Shown: piece after piece, positions 6,567-36,095 of the stretch
How the letters are laid out: each line of letters starts with the position of its first letter
Position numbering within the stretch: the stretch's first letter is position 1
Source of the DNA: Clostridia bacterium
Lineage (GTDB): Bacteria; Bacillota; Clostridia; Christensenellales; UBA3700
NCBI GenBank assembly: GCA_016287155.1
Contig: JAEEWC010000051.1
Coordinates: forward strand, 1-46,115
DNA length: 46,115 nt
Reading direction: 5' to 3'
Translations under genes and position numbers: made by a program
The notes under the pieces: model-generated
The model's input: only the letters and a program-made list of their open reading frames with translations
What the model was told of the DNA's origin: nothing
Databases searched by the model: none

Positions 6567-9500
6567 TTATGATTCGCGCTTTTTAGCTTTCTTGCTTTTT
6601 ACTTTCTTAACAATTAATACTACTATTCCAGCAATGGCGCCTGCGATTAGTATACAAATCACAACAAATGCTGCTGTATTATCTTCTGCATATTCTTTTA
6701 ATTCATCCGAAATATATTGAGCCGTAACCTTATTGTTTGTATTCCAGTTTCCATGCCAGTTAGCGTCGCTTAAACCTGTAGGCATTTTTATTGCAGTTAT
6801 ATTCTCATCAAACGCCTTTCGGCCTACGTATTGCAAGTCTTTATTTAATTCAACTTTAGAAAGATTTTTACAACCCATAAATGCTTTGTTATCGATTGTC
6901 TTTAGTGTTGATGGGAATTGCACCATTTTTAAATTATAGCAATTATAAAAAGCCTTTTCTCCAATCGTCTCCAATCCTTCATTAAAAATAATACTCGTTA
7001 ATGTACTATTATCTTGGAACAATGCTTCATCAATCTTTTTTAAACTACCTTTGATTGTGAAGTTTGTTATATATAAATTGCTTATATAATCTCTTGTTAA
7101 TGACGTTGCATCTATTACTTTCAATTCATTTATATACCAGCCTGATGTTTTAGCAAAATATTTTGAAATGTTATCATTTGAGTAATTATTTACTTTTTGA
7201 GATATAGTTAGAGTTGTTACGCTACAATTTGCAAATGCATTTTGTCCTATGTTAATAACTTTACTTAAATCTAAAGTTCTTAACGCAGTGCACCCATTAA
7301 AAGCATATTGCTCAATAGTAATATTTTGGCCCTCAATATTAATTGAACTTAATAATTTACAATTTTCAAAGCTATGGGCATAAATTGTACTCGAGTCAGC
7401 TTTGATATCTAAAGACTTAATAGCTGTAGCCGCAAACGAATACTCTTTATATTTTACACCTGCATACAACGAAACAATTTCAGTTAAATTTCCGCAGTTT
7501 TCAAATGCATGTTGAGGCACTTCTTTAAGTATATTCAAATTTACTTTTTTCAATTGAGAACAGTTTGCAAACGATCCTTCCCCAATAGTTTCAATAGTTG
7601 AATCTAAAGCGACCTCTTTTATCCCAGTAGCATTGAAAGCATTTGCTCCAATTGATTTAATACCTTCAAATTTATATTCTGTAAGATTATTACAACCATC
7701 AAAGAAGTTATCTGGAATCACTTTTTGCCCTATAGGATTGATTTTAATACTATTAGTCATCTTTCCCTGAGGCATTAAGTTTGTAATACTTTTAACCACT
7801 TCTGTATAAATGTTATATTGTGTTATTCCGCTACATCCTACAAAGATTTCTTTACCTAAATCGCTAGCATTTGAAGGAAGTGTTATTTTATTCAATCCGG
7901 TACAATCATTAAATGCATAATCACCAATTGTTTGCACAGCACTTGGAATAGAAATACTTGTTAAGCTTTTGCACCCCTTAAAAGCGGACTCGCCAATTGT
8001 TCTCACCGTATTTGGAATAGAAATACCTGTTAATGACGCACAATTAGAAAAAGCTTCTGCACATAATACGGTTGGATTATTAGTTACTTCTATTGTCTTA
8101 ACATTATTTGCAAAATATGTTCCGAATATACTTTCTATTCCATTTTCTAAAAGAGGAAGTTTAATGCTTTCTAAATTTCCAATTCCAGAAAATGCGCCTA
8201 TGCCAATTATTGTAACTATATTTGTCAAATTAATTGATTTAATTTGGCAGTTCTTAAACGCATAATCTCCAATCTTTGTAACATTTGACCCGATACTATT
8301 CAAAACTAGGCATCCACATCCATCGAATGCATGATCTCCAATGGTTTTTATACTAGAGTTAATACTATTCAAAGTAAGGCCGCTACAGCCATCAAATGCG
8401 TGCGCAGGAATAGATGTCAATCCTGAGTTTAAAGAGATACTACTTAATCCTGAACAACCCCAAAAAGCTCCCTCTCCAATACTATTCAAATATGCAATAA
8501 ACGCACCATTAGTTAGGTTTGAACATCCTTTAAATGCGTTATTGCCTACTGCATTTATAGTTCCGTTAATAGTTAGATTCTTCAAAGAAGAACAGCCTTC
8601 AAAATATGAATTTGGAATTGTTTGGGAATTTGCGTCCAATGTAATAGTAGTAATTTTTGAGACTAAGTCAGTTCCAAATATTTGCATTAAACTGTTTGCA
8701 AATACTTTAATTCTAATACTTGTAATTTTATTACATTCATAGAATGCATTTTCGCCGATATTTGTTATGGCTTCGTTTAATGCTAATTCCGAAAGATTAG
8801 AACAGCCCTTAAAAGCAGAATTAGGGATGCTTGTTAAGGAATTGCTAAACTCAACGCTTTCTAGGTTTTTACAGCCTTCAAATGCGCCTACACCTAAACT
8901 ATTTATTGTAGACAAGAATGAAAAATCCGCAATTGATGCACAACTTCTAAATGCACATTCGCCGATATTGCTTAAGTTGCTACTCAACGTAAGCGAAGAC
9001 AAATTTTCGCATCCATCAAAATAGTAATTTGGGATTGTGTTATTATTATCAGTTACAACTATAGTAGTAATTGTTTTGTATGCAGACAAGAACAAGGTTT
9101 TAATTGGATATTCCATTTTTTTAATTGTTGCATTTGCAACCTTTTCGCACCCATAAAACATTGAATCATCATATTGGGCTCCTGTCGTATTGATGCTAAC
9201 CGTAGACAAATTCGTGCAATAACTAAATGCTGCATATCCAATTGAAGTAATTGAACTTGGAATTGTAAGATTAGTTATTGCCCCACAACTAATAAAGGCG
9301 TGCGATCCAATCGATTTAATACCATCTCTTAGATTTAGCACTGATAGTGATTTGCAGTTTGAGAAAGCATTATCGCCTATATTTTGAAGTTTTGTCAAAG
9401 AATCTATTCCATTCCACTTTTGGCAATTATTAAAAGCATTTTCAGAAATGCTAACAACATTACCTATCCCCGTAATAGTAGTTAAATTTTTACATCCTGC

Positions 9501-12500
9501 AAAGAATGAAGGAGCGATGACATTTGGATTATTATTAATATTAATCGTACTAAATGTTGAAACACTTGAATCTCCAAATATATAAATCAGCGCATTATTT
9601 ACCATTGGCATTGTTAAAGTTGAAGTAAGGCCAACTGAATCAAAAGCTTCATTGCCAATTGATGTGATACTTGAGCTTATCTCAGTTAATGTTAAATTTG
9701 AACAACCATAAAACGCATATTCTGGAATCGCTGTAATTTGTGAATTTAAATTAAATGTATTAAGCCTTGAACAGTTGTAGAAAGATCCCATACCAATACT
9801 TGTTAAATTTGGAATAAACCCAAATGTTGTTAACGCATAACAATTCTTAAATGCATAATCGCCAACGCTATTTATCGAGCCCTCAATATTTAATGTTCTA
9901 AGTGATGTAAATCCTTCTAAGAAATGGGCTGGCACCCTTGTGTAACTCGTAGCTAATGTTACATTTTCAATGCGAGCTGCAACACTGTCTCCAAACAAGT
10001 CTTTTAAGCTTGACTGAATTGCAAATATTTCCAAATTTGTTAGATTAGAGCAATCTATAAATGCATCATTACCAATACTTGAAACATCTTGTTTTAAAAC
10101 TAATGTTGTTAACCATATACAACCATAGAATGTTTCTTCTGCGATACTAGAGACATTATTTAATGTAATTGTCTCTAAAGCTGCACATCCTCTTAAGGCT
10201 CCCTTTCCAATTGTTTGAGAATTACTTATAAATGAAAAATCTCTCAAACTTGAACAGTTCATAAAAGCATAATCGCCGACATGCGAAACATTTCCATTTA
10301 CATTAAGTGTTTGTAAATACGTACAATTTTTAAAAAACTCATTAGGGATTGTCCCGTTATAAACATTTAGATTAACTGACTTTATATTAGGTAATGCAAA
10401 AGAGTCAAACAAATATGATAACCCGCTTTCGTATCTTGAAGATATTGAGACAGCGCCCACACTATTGCAACTTCCAAAAACATTATTTCCAAATTCGATA
10501 TTATCACCAATAATATCAACACTATCAGCATTAGAACAGCCCCAAAATGCTTTTTCGCCTACGTTTACAGCATTAGATCCTAATGTGATAGAATTAATCA
10601 TTTTGCAGTTATAAAAGGCTTCTTTCTCTATATTAATAATCGCGCTAGTATCGATTCCTTCCAACTTGGTACAATTATAGAATGCAGAAGCTCCAACGCT
10701 TCTTATATTTGCAAAGCTTCCAATGCTTGTTAGATTTGAACATTTATAGAATGCTTTTTCGCCTACCGTCTCGATATTTGTATCCGTATTTAAAACAACT
10801 AAGGCGGTAAAACCATAGAAATATTCGTTTGGCACATTCTTTAATCCATAGATTGTTGCCCTAGCAATACTGCTGCTGTTTTTACTATCAAAAACATTAG
10901 ACAAAATGACGCCATCTAAATATGGCATCTTAATCTCTTTTAATGAGTTATTTGCGCCAAAAGCTTGATCTCCAATAGTTTTAACAGATGAAGGAATATC
11001 TATTGTGCTTATCCTAGAATTATTATAGAAGGCTTTCGCTCCTATTGATTCTAGCCCATCATTAAGCATTATTTGCGATAAATTAATACAGCCACTAAAA
11101 GCACTATTCCCGATGCTCTTTAATGCTATATTCGTACAATTAATACTACGTAAATTTTTACATCCTTCAAATCCACTATCGCCAACGCGAATCAAAGATC
11201 CATTAATTATTACGCTATCTAGGACCTCATCATTTGCAAAGCTTGAATTTCCTATTGTAACATTTTCCCCTGTTATTGTAATTGTTCTTAACTTTGGCAT
11301 ACCATCCGCAAAATCGTTTGGGATATTTGAATAATTATTTAAATATAAAGACTCAATTTTGCCAGCTGAACTTCCAAAAGTAGAATCGATAGAATTTACT
11401 GCATTGTCGTTTTGCAAAGTTAAAGTTGTAATATTACGGCATCCGCTAAACGCATCGTTGCTTACAGAAGTTAATGTCTTTGGTATTTCAATATTATTAA
11501 TTGATGTACAATTTGCGAATGCCTCGGATTTTATATTTGTAATTTCTTTACCGAAAGATATAGATTTTAGTTTCGAGCAATCGTAAAAAGCTTTTTCTCC
11601 AATATATGTAATTCTATCAGAATTCTCAATTATTGCTAGGTTTATACATTCTTCGAATGTATTATCTCCTATAATATAGTCTCTATCTCCTAGAACAACT
11701 AATCTCAAATTCCAACAATTTTTAAAGCTAGATTCTTCTATTGTTGCATTACTTTCTGTAAATACAATCTCCTGAACAGACTTATTCTTTTTAAATGTCT
11801 TCTTTGAAACCTCTTCAACACTTAAATCATCAATCTTTGCCGGGATTGTATATTTCAACTTTTCTTCATTGAACAAACCATCTATTATGATTGAGTTATT
11901 ATTCCCATAAATATAGTAATATGTATCATCATATCCATCATATCTATTGATGTAATATCCATACATCGAGAAGAATGTTATTGTCATCAATACATATACA
12001 GCAACTGTGCCCAACGAGTATTTAAACATCTTTGGACGCTTATATTTTTTCAAATTCCTATATATGCCAAGTCCACTTAACAATGCTATCACTGATAAAA
12101 CTGCAAATATTGTCAACAAATTAGATCTTTCCCACATCTCTTTTAACAACGTGAAATTATACTTTGCTGCAAAAGTTGTAAGAATAGTAAAAGTTATAAC
12201 GCCAACTGCACTTGGAGCATATTGCAATGTCATATCCATTGCTCTTCTCATTTTTATATTTTCATCTACGATTCTTTGGGCATGTTCTATAAAGGAAATT
12301 CTAAAAATATTATATAATTTGTTTAAATTATATTTATTATATTCTTCATATTCTTCTTCGTTTTGTATGCTTTGAATTACTTCTTTTTTTATCTCAAAAG
12401 AATAATTCTCTTTATTCAACTCTTTATTGAACAACTCAGACAAAACTTTACAATGAGAAAACAATGATAAGTGTCTATCCAAAAACAAACTATAGTACTT

Positions 12501-13307
12501 TAAAATATATTCTAATGCGCTAAGCTCCATTATTGGAGCCTCATCAGAATAATCCATTTCTAAAAAGTTCTCACTTTCTGCACCAATTGTTTTTAATAGA
12601 TCATTTATAGGCATACCTTTAACGCATATGTTTTTGGCAATAAAATTACGTGCCTTATCTAGCAAAGAAAATACTGTCTTTTGCTTTGGCTCTTCTAGTT
12701 GTAAAACGCGGCCTATACGTCTTAATAACGCATGAATTTTATACGCAAATATTCGCAACTTGATTAACCCAGCTTTTTCTTTATACTGATGCTGTGCATA
12801 CTTATCTTTGATAATATCGGCTTGTTCTTCCCAAGTTTGTACAAATTCCAATTCACTTACTTTTTCTTTATTTATAAATGAATTAACATCAGATACAAAC
12901 TTATTGAAATTAGCATATCTATATTTTTTATTTGTTGGAAGTTCGGCAAATTGCTCCTTTTGGCCACAAAAATTAACGCCTAAGTTAATCAAATCCATAA
13001 TTTTAATTTGATCCAATCTTGCTACGGATAGAATTGCTGAACTACTTAAAGCGTGTTTTGCAATGTTTTTATCTTTTTCTATAATAGATTTAAACCCTGT
13101 TAAATCTTTTTCGTCGATAGATATATCATAGCCCAAATTTTCTAATTGCAAATCTATTGAATCTACAGGGCGAATAAAACTATTAGGGATATAATCATCC
13201 TCGATTTTAAAATCTTCTATTAAGTACTTAAGAGGAATATCCTTCGGAGAAAGAGGATTAGCTCTTTCCGCACTGATATATCCAGGTTCTTTTTTCTTAC
13301 TAGCCAT
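6567..13307 (-). CDS. Giant membrane-anchored BspA-type leucine-rich-repeat surface protein
   Basis: This 2246-aa protein has four parts. Residues 1-365 form a helical, probably cytosolic domain that I do not recognise. Three membrane segments lie at about 366-385, 394-416 and 429-451. From about 495 to 2190 runs a BspA/LRR_5 solenoid with the recurrent pattern IGxxAFxxCxxLxxIxIPxSV. A final membrane helix at about 2209-2231 is followed by a basic tail ending KKAKKRES. The positive-inside rule puts both ends in the cytosol and the solenoid outside. There is no signal peptide or sortase motif. Such repeats usually bind host or bacterial surfaces. AAGGA overlaps the stop of the MBG gene seven bases upstream, so the two are co-translated. 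Confidence 0.85.
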   Translation of the reverse strand: MASKKKEPGYISAERANPLSPKDIPLKYLIEDFKIEDDYIPNSFIRPVDSIDLQLENLGYDISIDEKDLTGFKSIIEKDKNIAKHALSSSAILSVARLDQIKIMDLINLGVNFCGQKEQFAELPTNKKYRYANFNKFVSDVNSFINKEKVSELEFVQTWEEQADIIKDKYAQHQYKEKAGLIKLRIFAYKIHALLRRIGRVLQLEEPKQKTVFSLLDKARNFIAKNICVKGMPINDLLKTIGAESENFLEMDYSDEAPIMELSALEYILKYYSLFLDRHLSLFSHCKVLSELFNKELNKENYSFEIKKEVIQSIQNEEEYEEYNKYNLNKLYNIFRISFIEHAQRIVDENIKMRRAMDMTLQYAPSAVGVITFTILTTFAAKYNFTLLKEMWERSNLLTIFAVLSVIALLSGLGIYRNLKKYKRPKMFKYSLGTVAVYVLMTITFFSMYGYYINRYDGYDDTYYYIYGNNNSIIIDGLFNEEKLKYTIPAKIDDLSVEEVSKKTFKKNKSVQEIVFTESNATIEESSFKNCWNLRLVVLGDRDYIIGDNTFEECINLAIIENSDRITYIGEKAFYDCSKLKSISFGKEITNIKSEAFANCTSINNIEIPKTLTSVSNDAFSGCRNITTLTLQNDNAVNSIDSTFGSSAGKIESLYLNNYSNIPNDFADGMPKLRTITITGENVTIGNSSFANDEVLDSVIINGSLIRVGDSGFEGCKNLRSINCTNIALKSIGNSAFSGCINLSQIMLNDGLESIGAKAFYNNSRISTIDIPSSVKTIGDQAFGANNSLKEIKMPYLDGVILSNVFDSKNSSSIARATIYGLKNVPNEYFYGFTALVVLNTDTNIETVGEKAFYKCSNLTSIGSFANIRSVGASAFYNCTKLEGIDTSAIINIEKEAFYNCKMINSITLGSNAVNVGEKAFWGCSNADSVDIIGDNIEFGNNVFGSCNSVGAVSISSRYESGLSYLFDSFALPNIKSVNLNVYNGTIPNEFFKNCTYLQTLNVNGNVSHVGDYAFMNCSSLRDFSFISNSQTIGKGALRGCAALETITLNNVSSIAEETFYGCIWLTTLVLKQDVSSIGNDAFIDCSNLTNLEIFAIQSSLKDLFGDSVAARIENVTLATSYTRVPAHFLEGFTSLRTLNIEGSINSVGDYAFKNCYALTTFGFIPNLTSIGMGSFYNCSRLNTFNLNSQITAIPEYAFYGCSNLTLTEISSSITSIGNEAFDSVGLTSTLTMPMVNNALIYIFGDSSVSTFSTININNNPNVIAPSFFAGCKNLTTITGIGNVVSISENAFNNCQKWNGIDSLTKLQNIGDNAFSNCKSLSVLNLRDGIKSIGSHAFISCGAITNLTIPSSITSIGYAAFSYCTNLSTVSINTTGAQYDDSMFYGCEKVANATIKKMEYPIKTLFLSAYKTITTIVVTDNNNTIPNYYFDGCENLSSLTLSSNLSNIGECAFRSCASIADFSFLSTINSLGVGAFEGCKNLESVEFSNSLTSIPNSAFKGCSNLSELALNEAITNIGENAFYECNKITSIRIKVFANSLMQIFGTDLVSKITTITLDANSQTIPNSYFEGCSSLKNLTINGTINAVGNNAFKGCSNLTNGAFIAYLNSIGEGAFWGCSGLSSISLNSGLTSIPAHAFDGCSGLTLNSINSSIKTIGDHAFDGCGCLVLNSIGSNVTKIGDYAFKNCQIKSINLTNIVTIIGIGAFSGIGNLESIKLPLLENGIESIFGTYFANNVKTIEVTNNPTVLCAEAFSNCASLTGISIPNTVRTIGESAFKGCKSLTSISIPSAVQTIGDYAFNDCTGLNKITLPSNASDLGKEIFVGCSGITQYNIYTEVVKSITNLMPQGKMTNSIKINPIGQKVIPDNFFDGCNNLTEYKFEGIKSIGANAFNATGIKEVALDSTIETIGEGSFANCSQLKKVNLNILKEVPQHAFENCGNLTEIVSLYAGVKYKEYSFAATAIKSLDIKADSSTIYAHSFENCKLLSSINIEGQNITIEQYAFNGCTALRTLDLSKVINIGQNAFANCSVTTLTISQKVNNYSNDNISKYFAKTSGWYINELKVIDATSLTRDYISNLYITNFTIKGSLKKIDEALFQDNSTLTSIIFNEGLETIGEKAFYNCYNLKMVQFPSTLKTIDNKAFMGCKNLSKVELNKDLQYVGRKAFDENITAIKMPTGLSDANWHGNWNTNNKVTAQYISDELKEYAEDNTAAFVVICILIAGAIAGIVVLIVKKVKSKKAKKRES
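6737..11825 (-). repeat. Tandem LRR_5 coding repeats with a higher-order period
   Basis: About 70 leucine-rich units of roughly 22-24 residues are encoded. Every seven to eight units they are interrupted by a variant segment of the type LxxIFGxxxxxxITTI followed by IPNxYFxGCxxL. About ten such interruptions can be counted. DNA-level identity between units is low, so the array is old and not a recent slippage product. Confidence 0.75.
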
Positions 13308-13314
13308 TTATTCC

Positions 13315-16300
13315 TTAATCGATTACAAAGCTGCCCTTACGATCAACTTCTGCTAATACATATTTATTTGAATTTATTGTTATTGTATAGAAATATGTTC
13401 CAGCGGTTGCATAGTCAAAATCTATTATTTCATTTTCACATGCTTCTTCTGAATAATACTTAATCGTATAATCTATAGACTCATTCTCTACAACACCATC
13501 GAAAACCAACCCATTTGAATCTAATAAAGAATCTCTAATAAGAGTTATGGTTTTTGGTGTAATATTAAATGTTGATTCAAATGCAATATGGTAACATGGA
13601 TTAACATATAAATCTAATGAGATTCTATATTCACCAACATTATGTGCTTCATATTGCACTTCTATTATATTGTTATCACCGGAATCATTCTTTAATACTT
13701 GCAAATTTAAAACATTTCCGCTGCTTATAATTCCATTACGAAGATTAGTAAGATCTACGCCCTCAAAATGACTCTTTGTTACAAAGCCACTAATTTGCAC
13801 AGTCACTGTATGCGTACTTCCATCATAAACGACGCTATCTATTTCAGGATATGTTATTTGCATTCTTCGATATATCGTTCCAATCGCTGTTGTTGTATTA
13901 ATTGAATATTTATTTGAACTAATTTCTGTTACCGAGAAATTATAATCCCCAATATTTTTTGCTCTAAAGGTTAACATAATATAATTTGATTCTTTTTCTA
14001 GAGTAAAGATATTATTTGCCGTAAAAGAAGTAACGCTTATATCATTTATGTCATTCGTATCTATAAAGCCTGAAATCTTTAATGTAATGTCTTTATATGT
14101 ACCATCGTATTCATTATATTCATCATATTGCCATTCTGTATTAAGAACGCATGGCGTAATACTGAAATTAGACTCAACCGCACTTAATTCATAATTAGGC
14201 AAATTACTATTACTCTCTAAGGAAATAGTATAATCAGCTACATTTTTACATTTACAATAGAATTCTGCGTGGCCATCTACTAGCGCAACGTCAACAGTCT
14301 CTGCCCCAGTTACATTAAATCCATTTTGAATAGCGCTTAATCCTAAAGAATTTAAACCATCCACTTTATACGTTATTGAATGGTATAAACCGTCATATTC
14401 ATGAGATTCATTATCGCCTACTATATCAACGCTATCAGCGCTTAATTGTTGCTTATGAATTACTACTGTTTTACTGTAACTGCTCAAAGAATAGTCAGAA
14501 TCAAGACATCTACTAATTGCAAATGTATATTCTCCGGCATCCTTTATGCTAAATAATAGACATAGTTTGGTACTATTTTCAATTATTGTTTGAGTTGGAG
14601 CTAGAGTAAATGCTGAAGAGAACATAGATAGCGAAATATCATCTCCTGCTATAAAGCCAGATATCTCGAACTTAATATCATACGAAGAATTTACAAATGT
14701 ATATTCATCATATCCAACATAGTTAATTGTTAAACTCTTTGGTCTAATATAAATTCTCTTAACGCCACTTGAAGTGTAACTATAATTAGTATTACTAAAG
14801 CTATTTACCTCACAAGGGTAATAACTACTTTGTACATCTTTTGCCTTGAATACCAATTCTACATAGTTGCTATGTTTTCTAATCTCGCTGATAGTTCCGT
14901 ATCCCAAAGCAAATTGGCTTATCTCAACGTTATCAGCATCAGCACCTACAAAGCCCGAAATCATCAATGATATTTCATGATATTGATTGTCAAAATCGAA
15001 GACTTTAACATCCTCACTTATGATCCAATAATTCGTCAACTCGATTGCTGATATTTCAAAATTCGTTGAAATGCTAGGACAAGCATAATTCAATTGCACA
15101 GTATTTATTGGTAAAATTTGGATTGTCTCTTTATCAACATTTGTTTTAGCTATAGTATATACTAAATTACCATTTACAATTTTTGAAGAATAATTAGCAG
15201 ACGAATCGGTTTTGCGCATTACACTAAACATAGAATCTTTTGTTGTACCATTCAAATCTGCTGCACTTAAATTCTTTATTGTCACATCAAAGCTTTGTTC
15301 TGCTCCATTGTAGTTGAATGATGCGTTTCCAATCTCAACTTCTATTGCTCGTTTGTCTATACTAATAGAAGTTTCATATCTTGGCAAATAGTAATTGCTA
15401 GCCAAAGCGACATCCCCTAAGCCATAACAAATATAATCATATGAATGGCAATCTTTGTTTTTAAATATGATTATTACTGACCCAGCAGCTGATGAACGGT
15501 CGATTGTTATTGTCGCATTATTATTAAACCTAAAGAATGAATTTACAACATTATCTTCTTGCCCTTGAACAAAACCTCTAATGACTAATTTCTTCTCAAT
15601 ATCATATCCGGTATATGTATAATTTGTTGTATTTTCATCAACCCATTCTGCTGACAATTCTTTAGCAACTATACTCCAATTGCATTGATAATTGCTTGGC
15701 AATGCATAATTACAATTGCTTGGAAGAGAAAGCCTTGCAGTATATTGTCCGACTACTGTTGCAGAATTTTCAGAAATACTTGGGGTTAATACATCGCCTT
15801 CACATATTCCATCAACAGTATAATTTAAAGTTTTGCTTTCGCCACTATATACAAAACTGCGGTTTGTATCCCATGTTATTGATAAAGTTTTTTGCAAAAT
15901 TGTGATTCTATGTTCTACATCTGCAATACGATAATTAGATAAATTCTCGCTGTTTATTTTAAAACTGTAACTACCAACATCTTTTTTGCTATAAGAAAGT
16001 GTTACAATGCGTTCAGTTCCAGAATTATGAGAACTCATATCGCTAGGAGCAACATTTGTAACAAATGTTGAACTATCTATTAATGTGGCATCCTTCTCTA
16101 GCAATCCACTAATGCTTAAATTAGCAGTTCTTAGCGCGCCATTATATACTAATGAACTTCCACAATCCCAATATGTGATTAATTGCTTTTCATTAATTGT
16201 CCACGATGTAGATGTGTTAGCATTTAATTCATAGTTTTTATGAGAAAGCGATGCCGTTACAGAATAAGTCCCAGCATTTGTTTGCTTGTTGTTTGTATAT

Positions 16301-19300
16301 GATAAAACTACAGTATCTTTGCTGTTTGTTAATGCATTAGTGTATATCTTGCTTGTTATTACAGCTTCTCTTGTTTGCTCTTCTCCATTATATGTATAAT
16401 CAATAGTTCCCCAATCTAAAGAAATCTTAGTTCTATATACATAATATGTATACATTTTATTTACGTAGCTTGTAGCAAGCTCGTAATTTGAAGAATTGAA
16501 AGAATCTTTCAACCCAAGTATTTCAACTTCATATGTACCGGCATCAACTGCCTTATTGTTGATAGTATAATTTGTATAAGTATCTTGGCTTGATGCTCCT
16601 GTATTTGTATATATAATTGGCAAAGTAGTAAACAAATTACTATCTGCAGGCAAATAGCCTTTAACTTTCAAAGATAAACCAGTCAAATATTCCCCGTTAT
16701 AAGTAACAGTATCGTTTGAACTTTCTTTTTCTAAATAAATCTCAGCTCTATTAATAGTAAATACTTTTGACAATGCACTTGTAGTGCCAACTAACGTATA
16801 ATTTGAATTATCCGCAATAGATTCAACACTAATTGTATATACACCTGCATTCTTGGCTTTTGGAGAAGAAATTGTGCTTCCGTCGATGTATGCAGATCCT
16901 GAGCAACTATAATTAACATTTACTGCATCAGCTCCAATATTTGCGTAATTAATTTCAAAGCTATGAATTGTACCATCATAAGTATAGTTAGTTGCTGGCC
17001 ATGTCCAAGCTAATACTTTTGGATAAATTTCTACCTCTAAATGAGAATTTGCTAAAGATGTTCCATCAAAATCATAATTTGAATTTGTTACGCTATTAAC
17101 TATTAGAGAATAAGTCCCCGCATTTCTTGCATACAAGTAGAAAATACTCCTATTGGTGTCATATGTTCTATATTCGAAAGTTCCTCCTTGTGGTTTTGAA
17201 ATAGACAAATCCCCTATTCTAAAATTTCTTGCATACGTTGAATCGGCAAACCCACTCACAGTCAATTTAATACAATCAATATCATCTCCTGAATATACAT
17301 AATCAGATGAAGATGCACGAGCTAGAGCAAATGTTAGCACTCTTTTGTTAATTGTATAAGCTTTAGTCAAATTGTCTTCTGGAAGACAATAGTTAGAGTT
17401 GCTTAAGCTAACTAATCTTATGCTATAATTCCCCGCCTCTCTATAAGTATCGACTACCATTCCATTTTTATATACGGCATACGAGCCAGATACGGAATCA
17501 CCACTGCAAACATTTGAGAATGATGCAGTATCATTTTTATTACTTCCATCATAAGTAAATGTATTATTTGACCAAGTTACACCAACGACTCTTTTATTAA
17601 TAACCCAATTAAACATTTTAGTCGAATCATTAATTGCATAATTACTATTATTTAGATTTGTTATTGTAGCAATATATGTTCCTGCAGCATTAAGCCTATA
17701 GTTTGCCATATTACTAATAGTTGGAGTTAAAGAATCTTTCTCCCCGCTATCTTCTCTTACACACAATCCAGTAAATACAGGCTTAACCGAATGATAATTT
17801 TTATCATAAACAAAATCATTGTCCGTATATGCCTCTAATGTATCTCCATTAACCCAACTATTTGTAATTGTCTTTTGATTAATCGCGAAAGAGTAAGTTA
17901 GATTTTGAATAGTATAATTAGAGAAGGTATTTTTACCTTGAGCTATTGTATATGTAGTTGCATCAATTGCTTTAAATTTTACAACAATACAACCATTATC
18001 TATAACTACACCATTTACCATGGTTACTTTACTTGCTGGGGTGCAGTTATATGTAAAGAACGAATTATCTACTGAATTTAAATCATCTCTAAGTGGAGTA
18101 TTTACAAATCCATCATATCTAAACCCGAATTCATGATATTTACCATCATAAATAGTTGCCGGGCCATTATATTTAGACACAGTTATTGATTTTTTCGTTA
18201 TTTCCCAATTATAGTTGCACGTATCGTCAACCTTATAATTTGTATTAGTTGTTGAAATTGTTGCTGTATAATAACCTACATCAATAGCAGTCTCGTTATT
18301 ATATGCCAATGGGATTTCATCGTTACCACATCTATTTGTAACAGATGCAACAACACTATGATTAAAGCCATTATAGACTAAATTATCATCTGTGTCCGAT
18401 AAGTGCCATTCTAGTTTCAACAATCTAGGTTTAATATTAAATGTTGTACTACATTCTTTATCTTCATAGTTGTTTCTAAATTGTTCATTCCCAATTGAAT
18501 TAATTGAGACATTGTATGAATCTGCAGAAATGCCTTTAAAACTAATAACCCTACCATTTGTACTGTTATTAATTGTTGTTGATGTACATTTAGGATATGA
18601 TCCTGCGAACGTAGTAATGTTATTAATATCTCTTTGGTAAACATTTGAGATTGTTAATTGAAGAGCTTGTTCTAATCCGTTATAAGTAAACTCTTTTGTT
18701 CCCCACTCTACAGTATAACTAGCCTTGTTTATCTTTAGAGTTGAAGTCATATTCTCAGAGTTAAGAACATAATTATTATAATTAGAGACAATACTATTAA
18801 TAGTTGTTGTATATTCTCCAGCATCTATTGATGAAAAACCGATTGTTACCTTTCTATCATTATTGTCTATTAAACCTATAGAGCCATCACTAACATATGT
18901 CATTTTTTGCATAATGTTATTTCTTGTATATTGCTTAGCATCATCGTTAAAGAATCCAGTTAACGCTAGCTCCATTGCTTGAGATGCTCCATTATAAGTC
19001 AAAGTTTTGTTAGACCATTGAGCATTAATAACCGCTGGATTAATCTTAACCACTCGTGACGTTAATAATATTGTAGAAGCTTCATAGTTATTGTCATTAA
19101 AACCTAATATTTGTATATTGTAATCACCAACATTCTTTGCCTCAACTTTTACTTTCAATGCACCATCATTTGGTTTTTGTTCTGTCGTGAATACCAAGCT
19201 CGATGTATTTAATTGAAGACTATTATTTGCATTTTGAACGTCAGTTCTTGCTAGCCCAGAAATTGTAAAATCATATATTTGAGTCTCACCATTAAAGGTT

Positions 19301-21936: not shown

Positions 21937-21944
21937 TATTCCTA

Positions 21945-28056: not shown

Positions 28057-28069
28057 ACCTTATATATCC

Positions 28070-29932
28070 TTAATCTCTAAATCTTACCCACATTGCAGGC
28101 CTTACGCCTAATTTAAACACAGAAGATGCTCTATTTAAACAACCATACTGGTCTATACATTTCACTTCGTCTTTACCGCTTGAATCTGGACTTCTCAGCC
28201 ACCACCATTGAGCATTCTCTTTATCAAAATCAATGCTTTGTGGCAAGCCTTCTTCTTCAAATGCGATTCTACTGCCTTCAAATGACAAATATACTTCTAC
28301 CTCATTCTCGCTTAACAAGAAAATCTTATCGTATGTGTTTTCACATAAATATTTATTTGCTTTTTTCGTATATAAAGAATCTCTTGAATTGTCTACTTCC
28401 ATCTCAACAATTTGACTTTGCTCATCTTTATCAAAGCTATTCAATAAGAAGCTATGATTTAACCAATAATGCAAATTCGAATGGCTGTAGTTATTATCTT
28501 CGCGTTCATCATATTGGAATTGCTCAATAATCTTATCGCATATAACTAGTGACAATCCGTCTTTCTTATAAAGTGTTTTCCAATATAATTCTTTATTTCT
28601 ATAATTGCCTAATGGTCTTTTTTCACCTAGCCCTATATATATTTTTTGTTCTTCTTCTGAAATGTCATCAAACAAGAAATAATATTCTTGTCTAATTCTA
28701 TTTTTATCTTTTGTCAATCTCATAAGATTCTTCTTGATTGACATTATTTCATCATTTCTTTCTTGCTTGCCCTTTAATTTCGCTTTTAAATAATATTCCC
28801 ATAAAACCGCATCTTTTGGATAAATATCAAGTTGTTCATCGATAACTTGGATTGCCTTTTCGTATGATTTTCTATATTCTAGTAACCCTTCTATTTGATC
28901 TAGTTTTTGATAATAATCTTGAGAACGCGAATCTCTTTTTGTAACGACAATTGGGTTGTTTCTTATATTACGTGCTTCTATGATAGCAGCGCTAATTAAT
29001 TTTGCTAAGTCTTTATAATTATCTTTTTCAAAGCCATCAATCCAGTTTCTACCATCAGTAAACACTTTGGTTTCTGGGTCTGGTTCAACATTATCTAATC
29101 TATAAGTGATTCTTATTGCTTTTGGATTATGTTTTAAAACGTGACGAATTTCTTCATTACAATCTTTACTCTCTAAAGAGTCTTTTGACATTAGATATAA
29201 AAATACTGGGCAATGCTCTATGGCTGGCTTAATTCTTTCCCAATATAAACTCTTATCTGTTGATGCCTTTTCTAAGTTACGCTCACTATACCAACATAAA
29301 ATGTCGTTGTATTTTGTTTCAATATAATCAGCGATTTCTTTTGCCTTATTCTTTTCTCTACTGCTAAAGCAAATAAATACTTTTTTATCGTAGTAGATGT
29401 ATTTATTCTTTTCGATTTCTCTTGCTCTAAATGCAGCATCTAGTTTTTCTTTATAGCTATTGTATACACCTTGAGCCATAAAGAATTTTTCAATAGCAAC
29501 TCTTACCTCAATATCTGGGAATAATAAAAGTAATGTTGCTATTTCTTTTACTTCATCTAAAGTCAAAATAGTATCTGATAAATTTGCTAGAGTTCTTTCG
29601 TATGCTTGATAGTTATTCGTTAATTTATAATCAGATAATGCATATACAAAATTTGCAAAAGCATTTTCAGGATCATATCCTTTAATTTGAGTAGTAATGA
29701 CCTTTAGGTTATCGAAGTCAATTAAGTCGCTATGCTTTCTATTTAATGCGTCCTTGATAGTTTTCTTGAAGTTATCAATTTGCTCTTTCTTTAATTTCTC
29801 TGCGCCTTCTTTTATCTTTGCATATTCATCAACAGTTAAATGCGCACCACAAACTTCACATACATAGAATGTATCTCTAAAAATTAGACTCGATTCGCCA
29901 CATCTTGGACATTTAACTACTTCTAGTTTCAT
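28070..29932 (-). CDS. Zinc ribbon-TIR-DUF6273 protein
   Basis: The 620-aa protein has a zinc ribbon at residues 8-28 (CPRCG...CEVCG), a helical linker, a TIR domain at about 183-320 and a C-terminal DUF6273-like domain at about 420-620. The TIR begins KKVFICFSSREKNKAKEIADYIE, has a WYSERNL box and ends in a helix after RNWIDGF. Its CNEEI segment (E260/E261) sits where the catalytic glutamate of NAD-cleaving TIR enzymes is found. The C-terminal WWLRSP...GVRPAMW pattern is the DUF6273 signature, common next to surface and LRR proteins in gut Firmicutes. TIR enzymes in bacteria make signal nucleotides or deplete NAD in defence (Thoeris and others). Activity here is inferred. It is 12 bases downstream of the AAA+ gene. 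Confidence 0.85.
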   Translation of the reverse strand: MKLEVVKCPRCGESSLIFRDTFYVCEVCGAHLTVDEYAKIKEGAEKLKKEQIDNFKKTIKDALNRKHSDLIDFDNLKVITTQIKGYDPENAFANFVYALSDYKLTNNYQAYERTLANLSDTILTLDEVKEIATLLLLFPDIEVRVAIEKFFMAQGVYNSYKEKLDAAFRAREIEKNKYIYYDKKVFICFSSREKNKAKEIADYIETKYNDILCWYSERNLEKASTDKSLYWERIKPAIEHCPVFLYLMSKDSLESKDCNEEIRHVLKHNPKAIRITYRLDNVEPDPETKVFTDGRNWIDGFEKDNYKDLAKLISAAIIEARNIRNNPIVVTKRDSRSQDYYQKLDQIEGLLEYRKSYEKAIQVIDEQLDIYPKDAVLWEYYLKAKLKGKQERNDEIMSIKKNLMRLTKDKNRIRQEYYFLFDDISEEEQKIYIGLGEKRPLGNYRNKELYWKTLYKKDGLSLVICDKIIEQFQYDEREDNNYSHSNLHYWLNHSFLLNSFDKDEQSQIVEMEVDNSRDSLYTKKANKYLCENTYDKIFLLSENEVEVYLSFEGSRIAFEEEGLPQSIDFDKENAQWWWLRSPDSSGKDEVKCIDQYGCLNRASSVFKLGVRPAMWVRFRD

Positions 29933-29944
29933 AAACCCTCTAAA

Positions 29945-31117
29945 CTACGCTTCCATAAACCATGCATCTGGATCTGGATTTGTATCTATCCCTTCTAGCC
30001 CTTCTAAATCACAAACTTTGATTGTAGATAATTCTTCATCAGTTGGATCTTGTATTTCTGAAACGCGGATAGATTGATTTTGCACAATTGTTTCAAACAA
30101 GTTTCTAACATCACGTGCATTGCCAAAATTCTTATCTCTATTTTCGTATTTATTATTTAAATAATTAACCATTAAATCTTCTGCGTCAGGTTCAAGAATA
30201 AACTGACTCTTACTACACATGCGTTTAAATATATTAAACATTTCTTGGCCTGTATAATCTTCGAAGTTAATGTATGTTTTAAATCTTGATCTTAAGCCTG
30301 GATTTGAATCGATGAAATCTTTCATTAATTCATTATACCCAGCAACGATTACAACTAATTCGTTTCTATGATCTTCCATCGCCTTTAGAATAGTATCTAT
30401 TGCTTCTTGTCCAAAATCACGTCCACCATTACCATTTAATGTATAGGCTTCATCAATAAACAAAACGCCACCTAGAGCCTCTTCTATTCGCTTTGCTGTC
30501 TTTTCTGCTGTTTGGCCAACATAACCTGCAACCAACTTTGATCTATCTACTTCAACTAATTGTCCCGTCTCAACTATATCTAAAGCAGCATAAATTTTGC
30601 CCATCAAACGAGCAACTGTAGTTTTTCCTGTTCCTGGATTTCCAGTAAATACCATATGATAAGACATATCTGGAACCGGTAATCCTCTTTCTTTCTTTAC
30701 CTTAAATACTTTAATTTGTTTTACAAATGCATTGACTTGTTGCTTTACTACATTCAAGCCCTCAAGACTATTCAATTCTGCTAAAACTTCATCTAAGTTT
30801 GGCTTAACAACTGGCTTTGATTTAGGCTCCTCTTTAGTACGTGTATTCTTAGGTTCAATTGGAGGATTAGATGGAACTGGTTTTGCACAGCCTATTTTAA
30901 ATCTACAAAACTCCAACTTCTTCTCGAGTTTATCAAAATTGCTCTTCATTAAAGCAACTTTTTTCAAGTCAGAAGAAGTACTTGCAATGGACTTACAAAG
31001 ATCCATTGCTTGTTCTATTGATTGTATTGCTGAAGTATAATCCCCAGCAGTCATTTCTATATCTATCCTCTTATTTAGTCGGATAAATTGGTCTTCCATA
31101 GCATATGCTGCCATCAT
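29945..31117 (-). CDS. CbxX/CfqX-type AAA+ ATPase with helical MIT/TPR-like N-terminus
   Basis: The 390-aa protein has one AAA+ module at about 105-385 of the CbxX/CfqX (SpoVK, EccA) class: Walker A GNPGTGKT at 159-166, Walker B VLFIDEA at 218-224, the pore-type GYVGQT at 198-203 and arginine-finger candidates R276 and R278 in GLRSRF. Residues 8-76 form a three-helix bundle with a GDYTSAIQSIEQA turn that resembles an MIT domain, the adaptor by which Vps4 ATPases grip ESCRT-III tails. EccA-type TPRs are an alternative. A proline-rich linker (78-104) joins the two. The start codon abuts the stop of the ESCRT-III-like gene (TAAATG), so the two are co-translated and probably act together as substrate and disassembly motor. 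That pairing is inference. Confidence 0.85.
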   Translation of the reverse strand: MMAAYAMEDQFIRLNKRIDIEMTAGDYTSAIQSIEQAMDLCKSIASTSSDLKKVALMKSNFDKLEKKLEFCRFKIGCAKPVPSNPPIEPKNTRTKEEPKSKPVVKPNLDEVLAELNSLEGLNVVKQQVNAFVKQIKVFKVKKERGLPVPDMSYHMVFTGNPGTGKTTVARLMGKIYAALDIVETGQLVEVDRSKLVAGYVGQTAEKTAKRIEEALGGVLFIDEAYTLNGNGGRDFGQEAIDTILKAMEDHRNELVVIVAGYNELMKDFIDSNPGLRSRFKTYINFEDYTGQEMFNIFKRMCSKSQFILEPDAEDLMVNYLNNKYENRDKNFGNARDVRNLFETIVQNQSIRVSEIQDPTDEELSTIKVCDLEGLEGIDTNPDPDAWFMEA

Positions 31118-31690
31118 TTACCCCCAATTACTAACGTCAGCCAAGCCTGCTGCTTCAGTTGTATCTTTATCAGCTTGTTCTATTTCATCTTCAATTTGTT
31201 TTGCTAATTCTTCATCTATCTCTTGGTTCGTAGAAGAATCAACTTTATTGATTGATGCATTTACTGAGCTAAACATAGTATCCATCTTCTCAAACTTCTT
31301 TGAGAACTTATTATTAAATGACTTTAATTCGCCTAAAATACCTTTAACTTCTGAAGACATATTCACTTTTCCAACTTCTTTCATGACTTCGCCTATAGTT
31401 TTATATAGGTCCATTTTCATAAAAGCTTCATCAATCATAAATTTAAATTGTTCTAACTTGTTTAGGATTTCTGTTGTCTTATGTCTAAAGATTAATTGTT
31501 GTCTTAAAGTTTCCATTAATCTTTTAACTTCTAAATTATCCCCTTGTTTTTTAGATAAAGTGATTTTTTGTTTTAGTGCATCAATTTTTTCATCATATAT
31601 TGAAATATGATTATTGATAGAATCACTTACCATATCAAACTTAACATCTATTTGAACCTTATTTGGAGTTTTATTCTTCTTATCAAACAT
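31118..31690 (-). CDS. ESCRT-III/PspA-shaped helical protein
   Basis: The 190-aa protein is almost all helix. The first half is basic (long helices around ALKQKITLSKKQGDNLEVK and FRHKTTEILNKLEQFKFMID) and the last third is strongly acidic (QEIDEELAKQIEDEIEQADKD). Size, charge polarity and the acidic C-terminal helix match the ESCRT-III/Snf7/PspA superfamily, whose members coat and constrict membranes, but no diagnostic motif proves it. It carries no membrane segment or enzyme motif. It is directly followed by the AAA+ gene and preceded by another coiled-coil gene and an SPFH gene. That context is reminiscent of the B. subtilis PspA operon (ydjFGHI) and of Snf7-Vps4 pairs. Confidence 0.7.
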   Translation of the reverse strand: MFDKKNKTPNKVQIDVKFDMVSDSINNHISIYDEKIDALKQKITLSKKQGDNLEVKRLMETLRQQLIFRHKTTEILNKLEQFKFMIDEAFMKMDLYKTIGEVMKEVGKVNMSSEVKGILGELKSFNNKFSKKFEKMDTMFSSVNASINKVDSSTNQEIDEELAKQIEDEIEQADKDTTEAAGLADVSNWG

Positions 31691-31701
31691 AATATTCCCT
31701 C

Positions 31702-32616: not shown

Positions 32617-32629
32617 AATTTAATTCCTC

Positions 32630-33568
32630 CTATTGTTTAGTTCCACATACTGAGCAAAATGCTGCACTCTTTGGAAGCTTAGCACCACAATTTGGGCAGT
32701 ACTTATCTGTAATATTTATTGGGGCTTTTGCATTTCCGTTTGTTGTTAATGTTGTGTCTACGACTTTTTCTTCAAATTGCGAACGATTTATTCTTGCCAA
32801 ATCTAATTCATGTTGAAGTGCTTTATCTTGTTCAGCTTGTCTTCTAGCATATTCCTTTTCATCTTTTTGACCTTCTAAATCATCTATTGCATATTTATTA
32901 ATAATATCTAAAACTTTTGTAATTGTTTCATCTGTTTCATCAACAGTATTTACGTGCATAGCAATAGAGTTTGGTTGAAGAGTTAATCCAATTTTTGATA
33001 AAACTCCTAATGTTTTTCTTGAACCCTTGAAAACGTCTTTAGCAACTTCACCTAATTTTGCATGCAAATCATTTTCTGTTGTTTCTGGAGTAATTATTTT
33101 CTTTATAGCATCTGAAATTTCATCGCCTAACATTTGTCTATATTTAGTATTAATTTCAGCTTGCAAATCAGCCTTTGTAAGAGTTTTATCGAAAGCTTCT
33201 ATTAGTAATTCATAATCAGTTACCATTACTTCAATAGAACCAACAACTGCGAATTTTAATTTTGCAGCAGGTAAATAACTCAAAGCGCATGTATGTTGAC
33301 CGGCGAAGAATTTAATCAAGATTGTATTAAACATCTTATCTGGGTATAGATAGCAATCTACAACATCCTTTCTATTTCCGCCTAGCATATCTGCATCTAA
33401 GTGATACGCATTTGGGCTTCCTTGATACTTCATTCCGCCAACAAATGCAACAGATCCACTCTTAACATATAGATCTATGTCTGACTTTTTTAGTTTAATT
33501 TCTGTTTTTTCAACAAGCACATCTTTGCTTGATAGACCAACTTTAATGCTTTGTGTAAATAAACCCAT
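32630..33568 (-). CDS. SPFH (YdjI/virion-core-like) protein with C-terminal zinc ribbon
   Basis: The 312-aa protein has an SPFH/band-7-like domain of the YdjI type over about residues 20-230, a charged coiled segment at 230-275 and a C-terminal zinc ribbon CPNCGAKLP...CSVCGTKQ at about 290-312. SPFH proteins assemble into membrane-associated cages and recruit partners. YdjI is encoded beside PspA in B. subtilis. There is no transmembrane helix, so membrane contact would be peripheral or through partners. It is the first structural gene after the regulator, two bases from its stop, and the two share a similar ribbon (CPxCGxK). Confidence 0.82.
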   Translation of the reverse strand: MGLFTQSIKVGLSSKDVLVEKTEIKLKKSDIDLYVKSGSVAFVGGMKYQGSPNAYHLDADMLGGNRKDVVDCYLYPDKMFNTILIKFFAGQHTCALSYLPAAKLKFAVVGSIEVMVTDYELLIEAFDKTLTKADLQAEINTKYRQMLGDEISDAIKKIITPETTENDLHAKLGEVAKDVFKGSRKTLGVLSKIGLTLQPNSIAMHVNTVDETDETITKVLDIINKYAIDDLEGQKDEKEYARRQAEQDKALQHELDLARINRSQFEEKVVDTTLTTNGNAKAPINITDKYCPNCGAKLPKSAAFCSVCGTKQ

Positions 33569-33570
33569 AA

Positions 33571-33933
33571 TTATATATTCTCCTTTTTGTCACATAATGA
33601 AACTTTTTTTCCGCATACCGGGCAATATTGTACCCCTTTAGGAAGTCTTTCTCCACATTGTTTACATTTCACAATTGCACCTAAATCTTCAGCTTCATAC
33701 ATATCCTCAGCTTCTACATTTGAAGATTTATAATTTTTCCCCGTAATTAAATAATCTAAAGAAACATCTAAAGCTTCAGCTAAAGTAGATAAGATACTAA
33801 AATCTGGATTCCCATCATTTTGCTCCCACTTGCTTACGGCTCTATCCGTAACATTCAATTTTTCGGCTAACTGTAATTGAGTAAGATTTAATTCTTTTCT
33901 TCGTTTTTTTATACGATCCCCTATTGTTATCAC
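33571..33933 (-). CDS. XRE-family regulator with C-terminal zinc ribbon
   Basis: The 120-aa protein has a Cro/CI-type helix-turn-helix at about residues 5-62 (LTQLQLAEKLNVTDRAVSKWE) and a zinc ribbon CKQCGERLPKGVQYCPVCGKK near 90-112. The frame extends to an ATG at 33954, but AAGGAG lies inside that extension, seven bases before GTG at 33933, and the domain begins right after it; GTG is therefore chosen. It heads the 27-kb block, and the inverted repeat AAACTC-N11-GAGTTT next to the promoter is a likely autoregulatory operator. The ribbon could sense metal or redox state or bind the zinc-ribbon partners encoded downstream. Confidence 0.88.
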   Translation of the reverse strand: MITIGDRIKKRRKELNLTQLQLAEKLNVTDRAVSKWEQNDGNPDFSILSTLAEALDVSLDYLITGKNYKSSNVEAEDMYEAEDLGAIVKCKQCGERLPKGVQYCPVCGKKVSLCDKKENI

Positions 33934-33990
33934 AATAAATCTCCTTATTTGCATTAATACTTCACCGTTCTCAAAGGTAGCATTTTAGCA

Positions 33991-34019
33991 AAACTCCACT
34001 ATCCGTTGAGTTTATTATA
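33991..34019 (-). promoter_or_regulatory. Promoter and putative operator of the 27-kb block
   Basis: Minus-strand TGTTATAAT (plus 34014-34022) is an extended -10 element; the -35 is poor. Immediately downstream, overlapping the expected transcription start, is a perfect inverted repeat AAACTC/GAGTTT with an 11-base spacer (33991-33996 and 34008-34013). An XRE dimer bound there would block initiation. No other promoter is obvious in the ten downstream genes, which are separated by 13 bases or less. Confidence 0.6.
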
Positions 34020-34897: not shown

Positions 34898-34907
34898 AAT
34901 TCACCTA

Positions 34908-34921
34908 TTACATTAATGTAA
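34908..34921. promoter_or_regulatory. 14-bp palindrome upstream of the NERD gene
   Basis: TTACATTAATGTAA is a perfect palindrome ten bases before the NERD start codon, just outside its ribosome site. It could be an operator or an RNA hairpin affecting translation. Being AT-rich, it could also be chance. Confidence 0.35.
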
Positions 34922-34955
34922 CACTTTGCGTATAACTTTCATTTATTCATCCTAA

Positions 34956-35888: not shown

Positions 35889-35929
35889 TCTAATCCCTCT
35901 CAAAACCTCACATAATTTTACCAATTCAT

Positions 35930-35935
35930 ATTATA
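35930..35935 (-). promoter_or_regulatory. -10 box of the nuclease-NERD unit
   Basis: Minus-strand TATAAT lies about 42 bases before the nuclease start. A TTGTAT 19 bases further up is a possible but over-spaced -35. Confidence 0.4.
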
Positions 35936-35990
35936 CAACACATAACTATAAGCTATACAAAATATAATAAATATTAGTGTTTAATTCTCT

Positions 35991-36073
35991 CGTGGCCCGC
36001 CACAGGTAAGTTATACGAACCCTAAAATTAGTAGTTGGTTATTGACCAAAAACATCCTAGGAAAACGTATAAC
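35991..36073. other. Foldable intergenic segment
   Basis: Between the nuclease promoter and the terminator at 36096 there is no gene. The segment holds a GTGGC-CC-GCCAC hairpin near 35992-36003, a TTGGT/ACCAA hairpin at 36035-36049, and a long-range GTTATACG/CGTATAAC pair (36010-36017 and 36066-36073) enclosing the latter. It could be a small structured RNA or a recombination site. No known family was recognised. Confidence 0.35.
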
Positions 36074-36095
36074 AATTACCAGAAAATAGAAAATA

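What the first reader, a model, noticed from the sequence alone, without database searches (positions are those of the whole stretch)
6567..34019. A 27-kb single-strand block joining a membrane-remodelling kit, TIR, SNF2 motor and two giant surface proteins
Ten genes are separated by -8 to 13 bases, with one visible promoter at the XRE end. Family knowledge gives SPFH and PspA/ESCRT-III proteins for membrane stress, TIR enzymes for NAD-based signalling, SNF2 translocases for DNA or RNA polymerase work, and LRR/MBG repeats for surface contact. I know of no described system with this combination. A plausible model is a surface-sensing envelope-stress or antiphage system in which the two membrane giants are sensors or effectors; this is inference.
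Basis: partly seen in the sequence, partly recalled or inferred. Interest (0 to 1): 0.88.

Follow-up and report, generated by a model that had tools for sequence, protein, structure and literature searches.

The report
Bacterial ESCRT-like membrane machine with TIR
A ten-gene block in a gut Christensenella-like bacterium is a diverged copy of an apparently undescribed bacterial relative of the ESCRT membrane-cutting machinery, linked in most relatives to an immune-type TIR protein that is sometimes fused to a leucine-rich-repeat surface domain, a pairing thought absent from bacteria.

Summary
The block is real: ten minus-strand genes (6567-33954) with gaps of -8 to +13 bases. No close copy of it was found in sampled relatives, but its core is one version of a conserved operon that I recovered at 41 loci, nearly all Christensenellales-type Clostridia MAGs. 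The conserved order is SPFH-zinc ribbon / small helical protein / two ESCRT-III-like proteins / AAA ATPase / zinc-ribbon TIR protein; 32 of 41 loci show all five main parts and 34 have the TIR. In relatives the ATPase is Vps4-like (MIT-like N-terminus, AAA_lid_3, Vps4_C), and one ESCRT-III-like protein matches the ESCRT-III of a Thermococcus ESCRT operon. Window protein P0005 folds, in prediction, like archaeal ESCRT-III (9 of the top 10 PDB hits are CdvB/CdvB2), and the window AAA groups with the CbbX half of the relatives' double AAAs. TIR and BspA-type LRR are fused in one chain in seven relatives. The SNF2 motor, its zinc partner and the MBG giant are private to this block; relatives carry BrxL or a trypsin-like protease instead. 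The host genome also carries the canonical version directly beside ftsZ. Published reviews say bacteria lack Vps4. The function (envelope surveillance or defence) is inferred, not shown.

The parts
33571..33954 (-). XRE-type HTH with C-terminal zinc ribbon (P0008), probable regulator; a relative (L121/L143) also starts with an XRE gene
   Evidence: Pfam HTH_3 9e-18, Zn_Ribbon_1 1.7e-6; L121/L143 order
32630..33568 (-). SPFH-like protein with C-terminal zinc ribbon (P0007)
   Evidence: Zn_Ribbon_1 2.9e-8; hhalign 96% to the relatives' SPFH family over residues 105-179; shuffle test weak, 63/2000; relatives in the same position hit Band_7_1 PF13421
31702..32616 (-). Coiled-coil/helical protein P0006, in the position of the relatives' first ESCRT-III-like protein (E3a)
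   Evidence: Position only; E3a profile match not significant
31118..31690 (-). ESCRT-III-like protein P0005, counterpart of the relatives' second ESCRT-III-like protein (E3b)
   Evidence: Pfam Snf7 0.0038; E3b HMM 23.2 bits, 1/2000 shuffles and 0/1000 block shuffles reach it, though hhalign gives only 2%; AF2 pLDDT 79; 9 of top 10 Foldseek PDB hits are archaeal ESCRT-III CdvB/CdvB2 or near, best E 0.036
29945..31117 (-). AAA ATPase P0004 (SpoVK/CbbX type, AAA_lid_6) with a helical N-terminus
   Evidence: Pfam AAA 1e-17, AAA_lid_6 3e-19; 58-65% identity to the CbbX half of the MIT+CbbX+Vps4 double AAAs of relatives, sister in tree; plasmid CbbX at most 53%; Walker A/B intact; MIT similarity of the N-terminus not significant
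28070..29932 (-). Zinc ribbon - TIR - DUF6273 protein (P0003), candidate signalling or NAD-cleaving effector
   Evidence: Pfam TIR_2 4.7e-13, DUF6273 1.9e-27; same architecture beside an SPFH gene in L123
23887..28056 (-). SNF2-type motor P0002 with large inserts; accessory, private to this block among loci seen
   Evidence: Pfam SNF2-rel_dom 6e-8, Helicase_C 2e-6; motifs GMGKT, DEAH, TATP, QRIGRIDR intact; no long homolog in 399 phylum genomes
21945..23894 (-). Cys-rich partner P0001 (five CxxC), overlaps the SNF2 gene by 8 bases
   Evidence: no family or homolog found
13315..21936 (-). 2873-aa membrane giant: about five N-terminal TM segments, MBG-like repeats; private to this block
   Evidence: TM; MBG_2 0.0028
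6567..13307 (-). 2246-aa BspA-type LRR giant with TM segments at 397-415 and 2215-2233; possible counterpart of the LRR part fused to TIR in relatives
   Evidence: LRR_5 1043 bits; TM; TIR-TM-LRR fusions in relatives

Best explanation
The block is a diverged variant of a bacterial ESCRT-like system that appears undescribed. Shown by computation: its SPFH / ESCRT-III-like / AAA / ZnR-TIR core corresponds to a conserved operon whose canonical form has a Vps4-like ATPase with an MIT-like N-terminus and an ESCRT-III-like protein homologous to that of an archaeal ESCRT operon. Inferred mechanism: the SPFH-zinc-ribbon protein marks a membrane patch; the ESCRT-III-like proteins polymerise there on damage or when the envelope is breached; the AAA ATPase remodels the polymer; the ZnR-TIR protein is recruited and activated by the assembly, or by the LRR/MBG ectodomains, and signals or cleaves NAD+; the SNF2 motor with its zinc partner (in relatives BrxL or a trypsin-like protease) is an exchangeable nucleic-acid- or protein-directed output. 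The most likely role is envelope surveillance and repair coupled to a defence-type effector.
For: 41 homologous loci found with the E3b alignment; same-strand order SPFH-P13-E3a-E3b-AAA-(ZnR-TIR) in most, all five main parts in 32 of 41, TIR in 34 of 41, several gaps cut by contig ends. The relatives' AAAs hit AAA and Vps4_C in 13/13. Their MIT-like N-termini match Vps4B MIT (0.018) and Chs1 MIT (0.0013) in PDB sequences, though a designed protein scores higher. E3b family HMM hits the ESCRT-III (Pfam Snf7 4e-4) of a Thermococcus plasmid operon with Vps4, kinase and PP2C, 57 bits, 0/2000 shuffles; the Vps4s align 33% over 393 aa, E 1e-50. 14 of 15 E3b C-termini carry an MIM1-like motif. Foldseek: E3b top 3 are CdvB/CdvB2; window P0005, 9 of top 10 CdvB/CdvB2. 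Window AAA sister to the operon AAAs. TIR-TM-LRR single chains. A published bacterial precedent for SPFH plus ESCRT-III cooperation is YdjI/PspA (PMC8581546).
Against: Foldseek E-values are individually weak (0.036-0.2) and helical hairpins attract spurious hits (BAR domains and designed bundles also appear). P0006 and the window AAA N-terminus are not significantly similar to E3a or MIT; P0005 to E3b is only 2% by hhalign; P0007 to SPFH is modest. The window AAA lacks the Vps4 half, so strict ESCRT membership fails for the window copy. In many relatives the TIR domain was found only with my own iterated profile, and only 12 of 37 TIR proteins show a simple W...E motif, so many may be inactive scaffolds. 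There is no evidence of phage or bacterial-plasmid carriage. No experiment. Nearly all genomes are MAGs.
Confidence: 0.6

Rival explanations
1. It is mainly a cell-division or membrane-trafficking device: an ESCRT-like machine that helps FtsZ in the final cut or makes vesicles, with TIR used only as a protein-protein interaction module.
For: The canonical operon sits beside ftsZ in the host (G000:C6) and in three relatives; archaeal ESCRT-III/Vps4 divides cells (PMC7615534); many relatives' TIR domains lack an obvious catalytic motif.
Against: The window copy is not near ftsZ but between R-M/nuclease-type genes and pcrA; most of the 41 loci show no ftsZ nearby; BrxL, SNF2, TIR and LRR are defence- or surface-type partners; the operon is patchy (19 of 181 order genomes), unlike a division gene.
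Confidence: 0.2
2. It is a PspA/YdjFGHI-type envelope-stress operon with unrelated defence and surface genes inserted downstream; the ten genes are not one system.
For: SPFH-zinc ribbon plus ESCRT-III-superfamily protein is the YdjI/PspA arrangement (PMC8581546, PMC11237479); SNF2/P0001/giants are absent from relatives; a defence-type cluster lies just upstream.
Against: No PspA-level match (TIGR02977 E 0.009, 15.8 bits against cut-off 243); no YdjG/YdjH; in relatives two E3 proteins plus an AAA; TIR retained in 34/41 loci and fused to TM/LRR in relatives.
Confidence: 0.15
3. It is an antiphage island in which the SNF2-P0001 pair is the working unit (DISARM/Dpd/BrxL-like) and the membrane module only a regulator.
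For: SNF2 resembles DrmD (98.9 bits) and DpdE (88.4 bits); BrxL ATPase (Pfam 6e-115) occupies the same region in relatives; neighbours include NERD, PD-(D/E)XK, D12 methylase and DndB/DpdB-like genes.
Against: Scores are far below the DrmD and DpdE cut-offs (610 and 500); no DISARM or Dpd partners in the block; BrxL in only 5 of 41 loci.
Confidence: 0.15

Closest known systems
Archaeal ESCRT 'main clade' systems (Makarova et al. 2024, PMC10936438), e.g. the Thermococcus peptonophilus plasmid operon
   Same: ESCRT-III and MIT-Vps4 homologs linked in one operon with further helical proteins; E3b and the AAA are detectable homologs by sequence
   Different: Bacterial; SPFH-zinc ribbon and ZnR-TIR/LRR instead of kinase/phosphatase and winged-helix proteins; the window copy has a CbbX-type AAA instead of Vps4
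Methanobacterial Meth_adaptin ESCRT loci (PMC10936438)
   Same: Vps4, ESCRT-III and an SPFH protein with coiled coil and zinc ribbon
   Different: No TIR, LRR, SNF2 or BrxL described there; adaptin-like proteins present there, none seen here
Bacillus subtilis pspA-ydjGHI (PMC8581546)
   Same: SPFH-zinc ribbon protein (YdjI) working with an ESCRT-III-superfamily protein (PspA) at the membrane
   Different: No AAA in the operon, no TIR, membrane anchors YdjG/YdjH absent here; P0005 is not PspA
TIR-based bacterial immunity (Thoeris ThsB and others) and animal Toll-like receptors
   Same: TIR; in seven relatives TIR and LRR in one chain, several with membrane helices between, recall the Toll-receptor part list
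   Different: No ThsA; ESCRT-like module attached; domain order reversed and LRRs of BspA type, so convergence is likely
DISARM DrmD / Dpd DpdE / BREX BrxL
   Same: SNF2 motor resembles DrmD and DpdE; relatives carry a BrxL-family ATPase
   Different: No other DISARM, Dpd or BREX component in the block

Membership tests
ESCRT (ESCRT-III + Vps4), window copy | ESCRT-III-fold protein | tested here: met
   P0005: AF2 pLDDT 79, 9 of top 10 PDB fold hits CdvB/CdvB2; Snf7 0.0038; E3b HMM 1/2000 shuffles. Single Foldseek E-values are weak.
ESCRT (ESCRT-III + Vps4), window copy | Vps4-type AAA (AAA_lid_3, Vps4_C) | tested here: not met
   P0004 has AAA + AAA_lid_6 only; it matches the CbbX half of the relatives' double AAAs
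ESCRT (ESCRT-III + Vps4), window copy | MIT domain on the AAA | tested here: inconclusive
   Helical N-terminus alignable but not above shuffles
ESCRT (ESCRT-III + Vps4), relatives' operon | Vps4-type AAA with MIT | tested here: met
   Vps4_C in 13/13; 33% identity to archaeal Vps4 over 393 aa including the N-terminus; MIT-like N-termini hit Vps4B/Chs1 MIT structures (modest E)
ESCRT (ESCRT-III + Vps4), relatives' operon | ESCRT-III homology and C-terminal MIT-interacting motif | tested here: met
   E3b to archaeal ESCRT-III 57 bits, 0/2000 shuffles; 14/15 C-termini match an MIM1-like pattern
ESCRT (ESCRT-III + Vps4) | ATP-driven remodelling or scission of membrane polymers | not testable with these tools
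   needs biochemistry
PspA / YdjFGHI envelope-stress system | PspA/IM30 protein above family cut-off | tested here: not met
   15.8 bits against cut-off 243
PspA / YdjFGHI envelope-stress system | SPFH-zinc ribbon partner (YdjI-like) | tested here: inconclusive
   hhalign 96% but shuffle test 63/2000
TIR NADase immunity | TIR domain | tested here: met
   TIR_2 4.7e-13
TIR NADase immunity | NAD+ cleavage or signal synthesis on infection | not testable with these tools
   needs biochemistry
DISARM | DrmD above cut-off plus DrmABC | tested here: not met
   98.9 bits against 610; no DrmABC among the block genes
BREX | BrxL with PglX/PglZ/BrxC | tested here: not met
   BrxL only in 5 of 41 relatives, none in window; no PglX/PglZ among the block genes

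The most novel reading that the evidence does not exclude
Some Clostridia possess a genuine ESCRT machine (two ESCRT-III-like proteins, MIT-Vps4, SPFH scaffold) whose job is to couple membrane breach to a TIR receptor or effector, in places a single TIR-transmembrane-LRR chain: a Toll-like, ESCRT-gated bacterial immune or envelope-surveillance system, with a chromosomal copy beside ftsZ and a diverged, re-armed copy (SNF2, LRR and MBG giants) in this window.
Probability: 0.4. Interest if true: 0.95.

Novelty: new variant of a known kind. Interest (0 to 1): 0.86.

Why it matters
Reviews state that bacteria lack a clear Vps4 homolog and that their ESCRT-III proteins are usually single (PMC7615534), and a 2024 survey places ESCRT in archaea and eukaryotes but not bacteria (PMC10936438). 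A bacterial operon with two ESCRT-III-like proteins, an MIT-Vps4 ATPase and an SPFH scaffold, located beside ftsZ in some genomes and linked to TIR/LRR receptors, would put those statements to a direct test. It also gives a handle on whether ESCRT took part in bacterial division, membrane repair or immunity, and on the old link between TIR and LRR.

Tried and rejected
Single-protein searches with window P0001, P0002, P0006 and P0007 in viral contigs, plasmids, phages and phylum genomes gave nothing informative; the break came through the Pfam Band_7_1 search, which exposed the host's second copy on contig C6. Plasmid AAA hits were generic CbbX/SpoVK without context. SNF2 hits in haloarchaeal plasmids belong to other DUF499/DUF1156-type loci. 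A first BLAST 'TIR' hit upstream of pcrA in the same-genus genome G222 proved to be DUF6273 only. P0006 as an E3a homolog and the window AAA N-terminus as MIT were tested and not supported. Viral or bacterial-plasmid carriage of the canonical operon was not found (only the archaeal plasmid homolog). Promoter/terminator scans were at chance level.
Full report
Observation. The window is the whole of contig C62 of a 1.26-Mb MAG. Pfam confirms the AAA, TIR, SNF2, LRR, XRE and zinc-ribbon calls. Snf7/PspA and MBG are weak, and SPFH is not recognised by Pfam in the window protein. The directon continues past the reported end into an aldo/keto reductase (gap 0), pcrA and ligA, and promoter-like sites are at chance level, so a single promoter is not shown.

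Rarity of the block as such. Window proteins have almost no close relatives: P0006 in 0 of 247 other order genomes and only marginal hits in 399 phylum genomes, P0007 in 0 of 299, P0003 in 0 of 249 others, P0002 only through its generic helicase motifs, P0001 nowhere in plasmids, phages or viral contigs. In the same-genus genomes G222 and G059 pcrA-ligA is present without the block, so the block was gained, or lost, at this site.

The key comparison. A profile search for Band_7_1 found a second SPFH locus in the host itself, on the 4-kb contig C6. It reads ftsZ - SPFH-ZnR - 117 aa - 208 aa - 195 aa - start of an AAA whose first 75 residues look like an MIT domain and whose AAA begins in Vps4 style. 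The same-genus genome G059 has the complete operon: SPFH, P13, E3a, E3b, MIT-Vps4, a BrxL ATPase (Pfam 6e-115) and a ZnR-TPR-TIR protein. All contain an AAA beside E3b (41/41); SPFH 37, E3a 39, TIR 34; all five together in 32, and several absences are contig ends. Thirteen have a double AAA (MIT + CbbX + Vps4). Nine have a zinc-ribbon trypsin-like protease, five BrxL. Of 37 TIR proteins, 30 have predicted membrane segments and seven carry BspA LRRs in the same chain. In a whole-genome sample of the order, E3b was found in 19 of 181 genomes and 13 of 94 genera. The loci were selected by E3b, so only the other genes' frequencies are informative.

Is it ESCRT? For the canonical operon the sequence evidence is good. 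Every AAA tested hits Vps4_C (13/13). The MIT-like N-termini match Vps4B and Chs1 MIT domains, at modest E-values. E3b finds, by plain tblastn, one protein in 7.3 Gb of plasmids: a Snf7-family protein in a Thermococcus plasmid operon with a Vps4, a kinase and a PP2C phosphatase, which fits the archaeal main-clade ESCRT loci described in PMC10936438. The E3b profile scores that protein at 57 bits (0 of 2000 shuffles), the E3a profile finds its neighbour more weakly (1e-4 in a seven-protein set), and the two Vps4s align over 393 residues (E 1e-50). 14 of 15 E3b tails end in a D/ExxLxxL motif like MIM1. The AF2 model of E3b (pLDDT 68) has the helix order expected of ESCRT-III and its best PDB matches are archaeal CdvB/CdvB2.

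Is the window block the same thing? For P0005, yes with fair confidence: E3b profile 23 bits (1/2000 shuffles), AF2 pLDDT 79, and nine of the ten best fold matches are CdvB/CdvB2, although hhalign was weak. For the AAA, yes: its CbbX domain is 58-65% identical to the CbbX half of the operon AAAs and sister to them, against at most 53% for plasmid CbbX proteins, so it belongs to the operon lineage but lacks the Vps4 half. For SPFH, probable. For TIR, the ZnR-TIR-DUF6273 architecture recurs beside an SPFH gene in L123. For P0006, position only. The window copy is therefore a diverged, re-armed variant and fails a strict ESCRT membership test (no Vps4).

How it probably works (inference). The SPFH patch recruits ESCRT-III-like polymers to stressed membrane, as YdjI does for PspA (PMC8581546); the AAA turns the polymer over; the TIR protein reads out the assembly. 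In relatives the readout is often one chain with TIR inside, membrane helices, and sometimes an LRR outside. In the window these functions are split between the soluble TIR protein and two membrane giants, and a SNF2/Cys-rich pair has taken the region where relatives have BrxL or a protease. The neighbouring NERD, PD-(D/E)XK, D12 methylase and DndB-like genes fit a defence island but prove nothing.

Literature. A 2023 review says bacteria lack a clear Vps4 homolog and that bacterial ESCRT-III proteins are often single (PMC7615534); the 2024 ESCRT survey puts ESCRT in archaea and eukaryotes, not bacteria (PMC10936438); a 2024 Psp survey notes Vps4-like transfers to bacteria in which snf7 is displaced by another gene, and no TIR-domain link (PMC11237479). 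Searches for ESCRT with TIR, BrxL-SPFH and Christensenellales-ESCRT returned nothing relevant. Only open-access papers could be searched, so prior description elsewhere cannot be excluded.

Noticed in passing
G000:C6 = L078 1-4014 (host genome), also L131, L132, L137: The canonical ESCRT-like operon lies next to ftsZ: directly in the host, L132 and L137, and about 3 kb downstream in L131. Bacterial ESCRT-III/Vps4 genes beside ftsZ raise the question of a role in division.
   Followed up: partly
L159, L166, L167, L168, L170, L171: Bacterial single-chain proteins joining ZnR-TIR with BspA-type LRRs, several with about three membrane helices between: the part list of a Toll-like receptor in reverse order.
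   Followed up: partly
L131 12081-13523, L132, L135, L137, L143: BrxL-family ATPase outside any visible BREX cluster, embedded in an ESCRT-like operon.
   Followed up: partly
L138 15711-19242 and similar sizes in L139, L144, L150-L154: A pair of ABC-exporter-like genes (one tested, Pfam ABC_membrane + ABC_tran) commonly follows the TIR gene.
   Followed up: no
L188 2017-7558 (Thermococcus peptonophilus plasmid): An archaeal ESCRT operon (Snf7-like, Vps4, kinase, PP2C) carried on a plasmid.
   Followed up: partly
L135 2583-18719: Vps4-like AAAs and ZnR-TIR genes on both sides of one SPFH/E3 operon; possible tandem systems. G095, G032 and G153 carry two or three E3b copies.
   Followed up: no
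window 34184-41475: Cluster of NERD-Top1 zinc ribbon, PD-(D/E)XK-like, RNase III, DUF7226, D12 methylase and DndB/DpdB-like genes on the same strand just upstream; looks like a defence island.
   Followed up: no
L089 3834-10487 (G316): SPFH-ZnR beside a 1547-aa protein that looks like an ESX/T7SS ATPase, another possible SPFH partner (from ORF reading).
   Followed up: no
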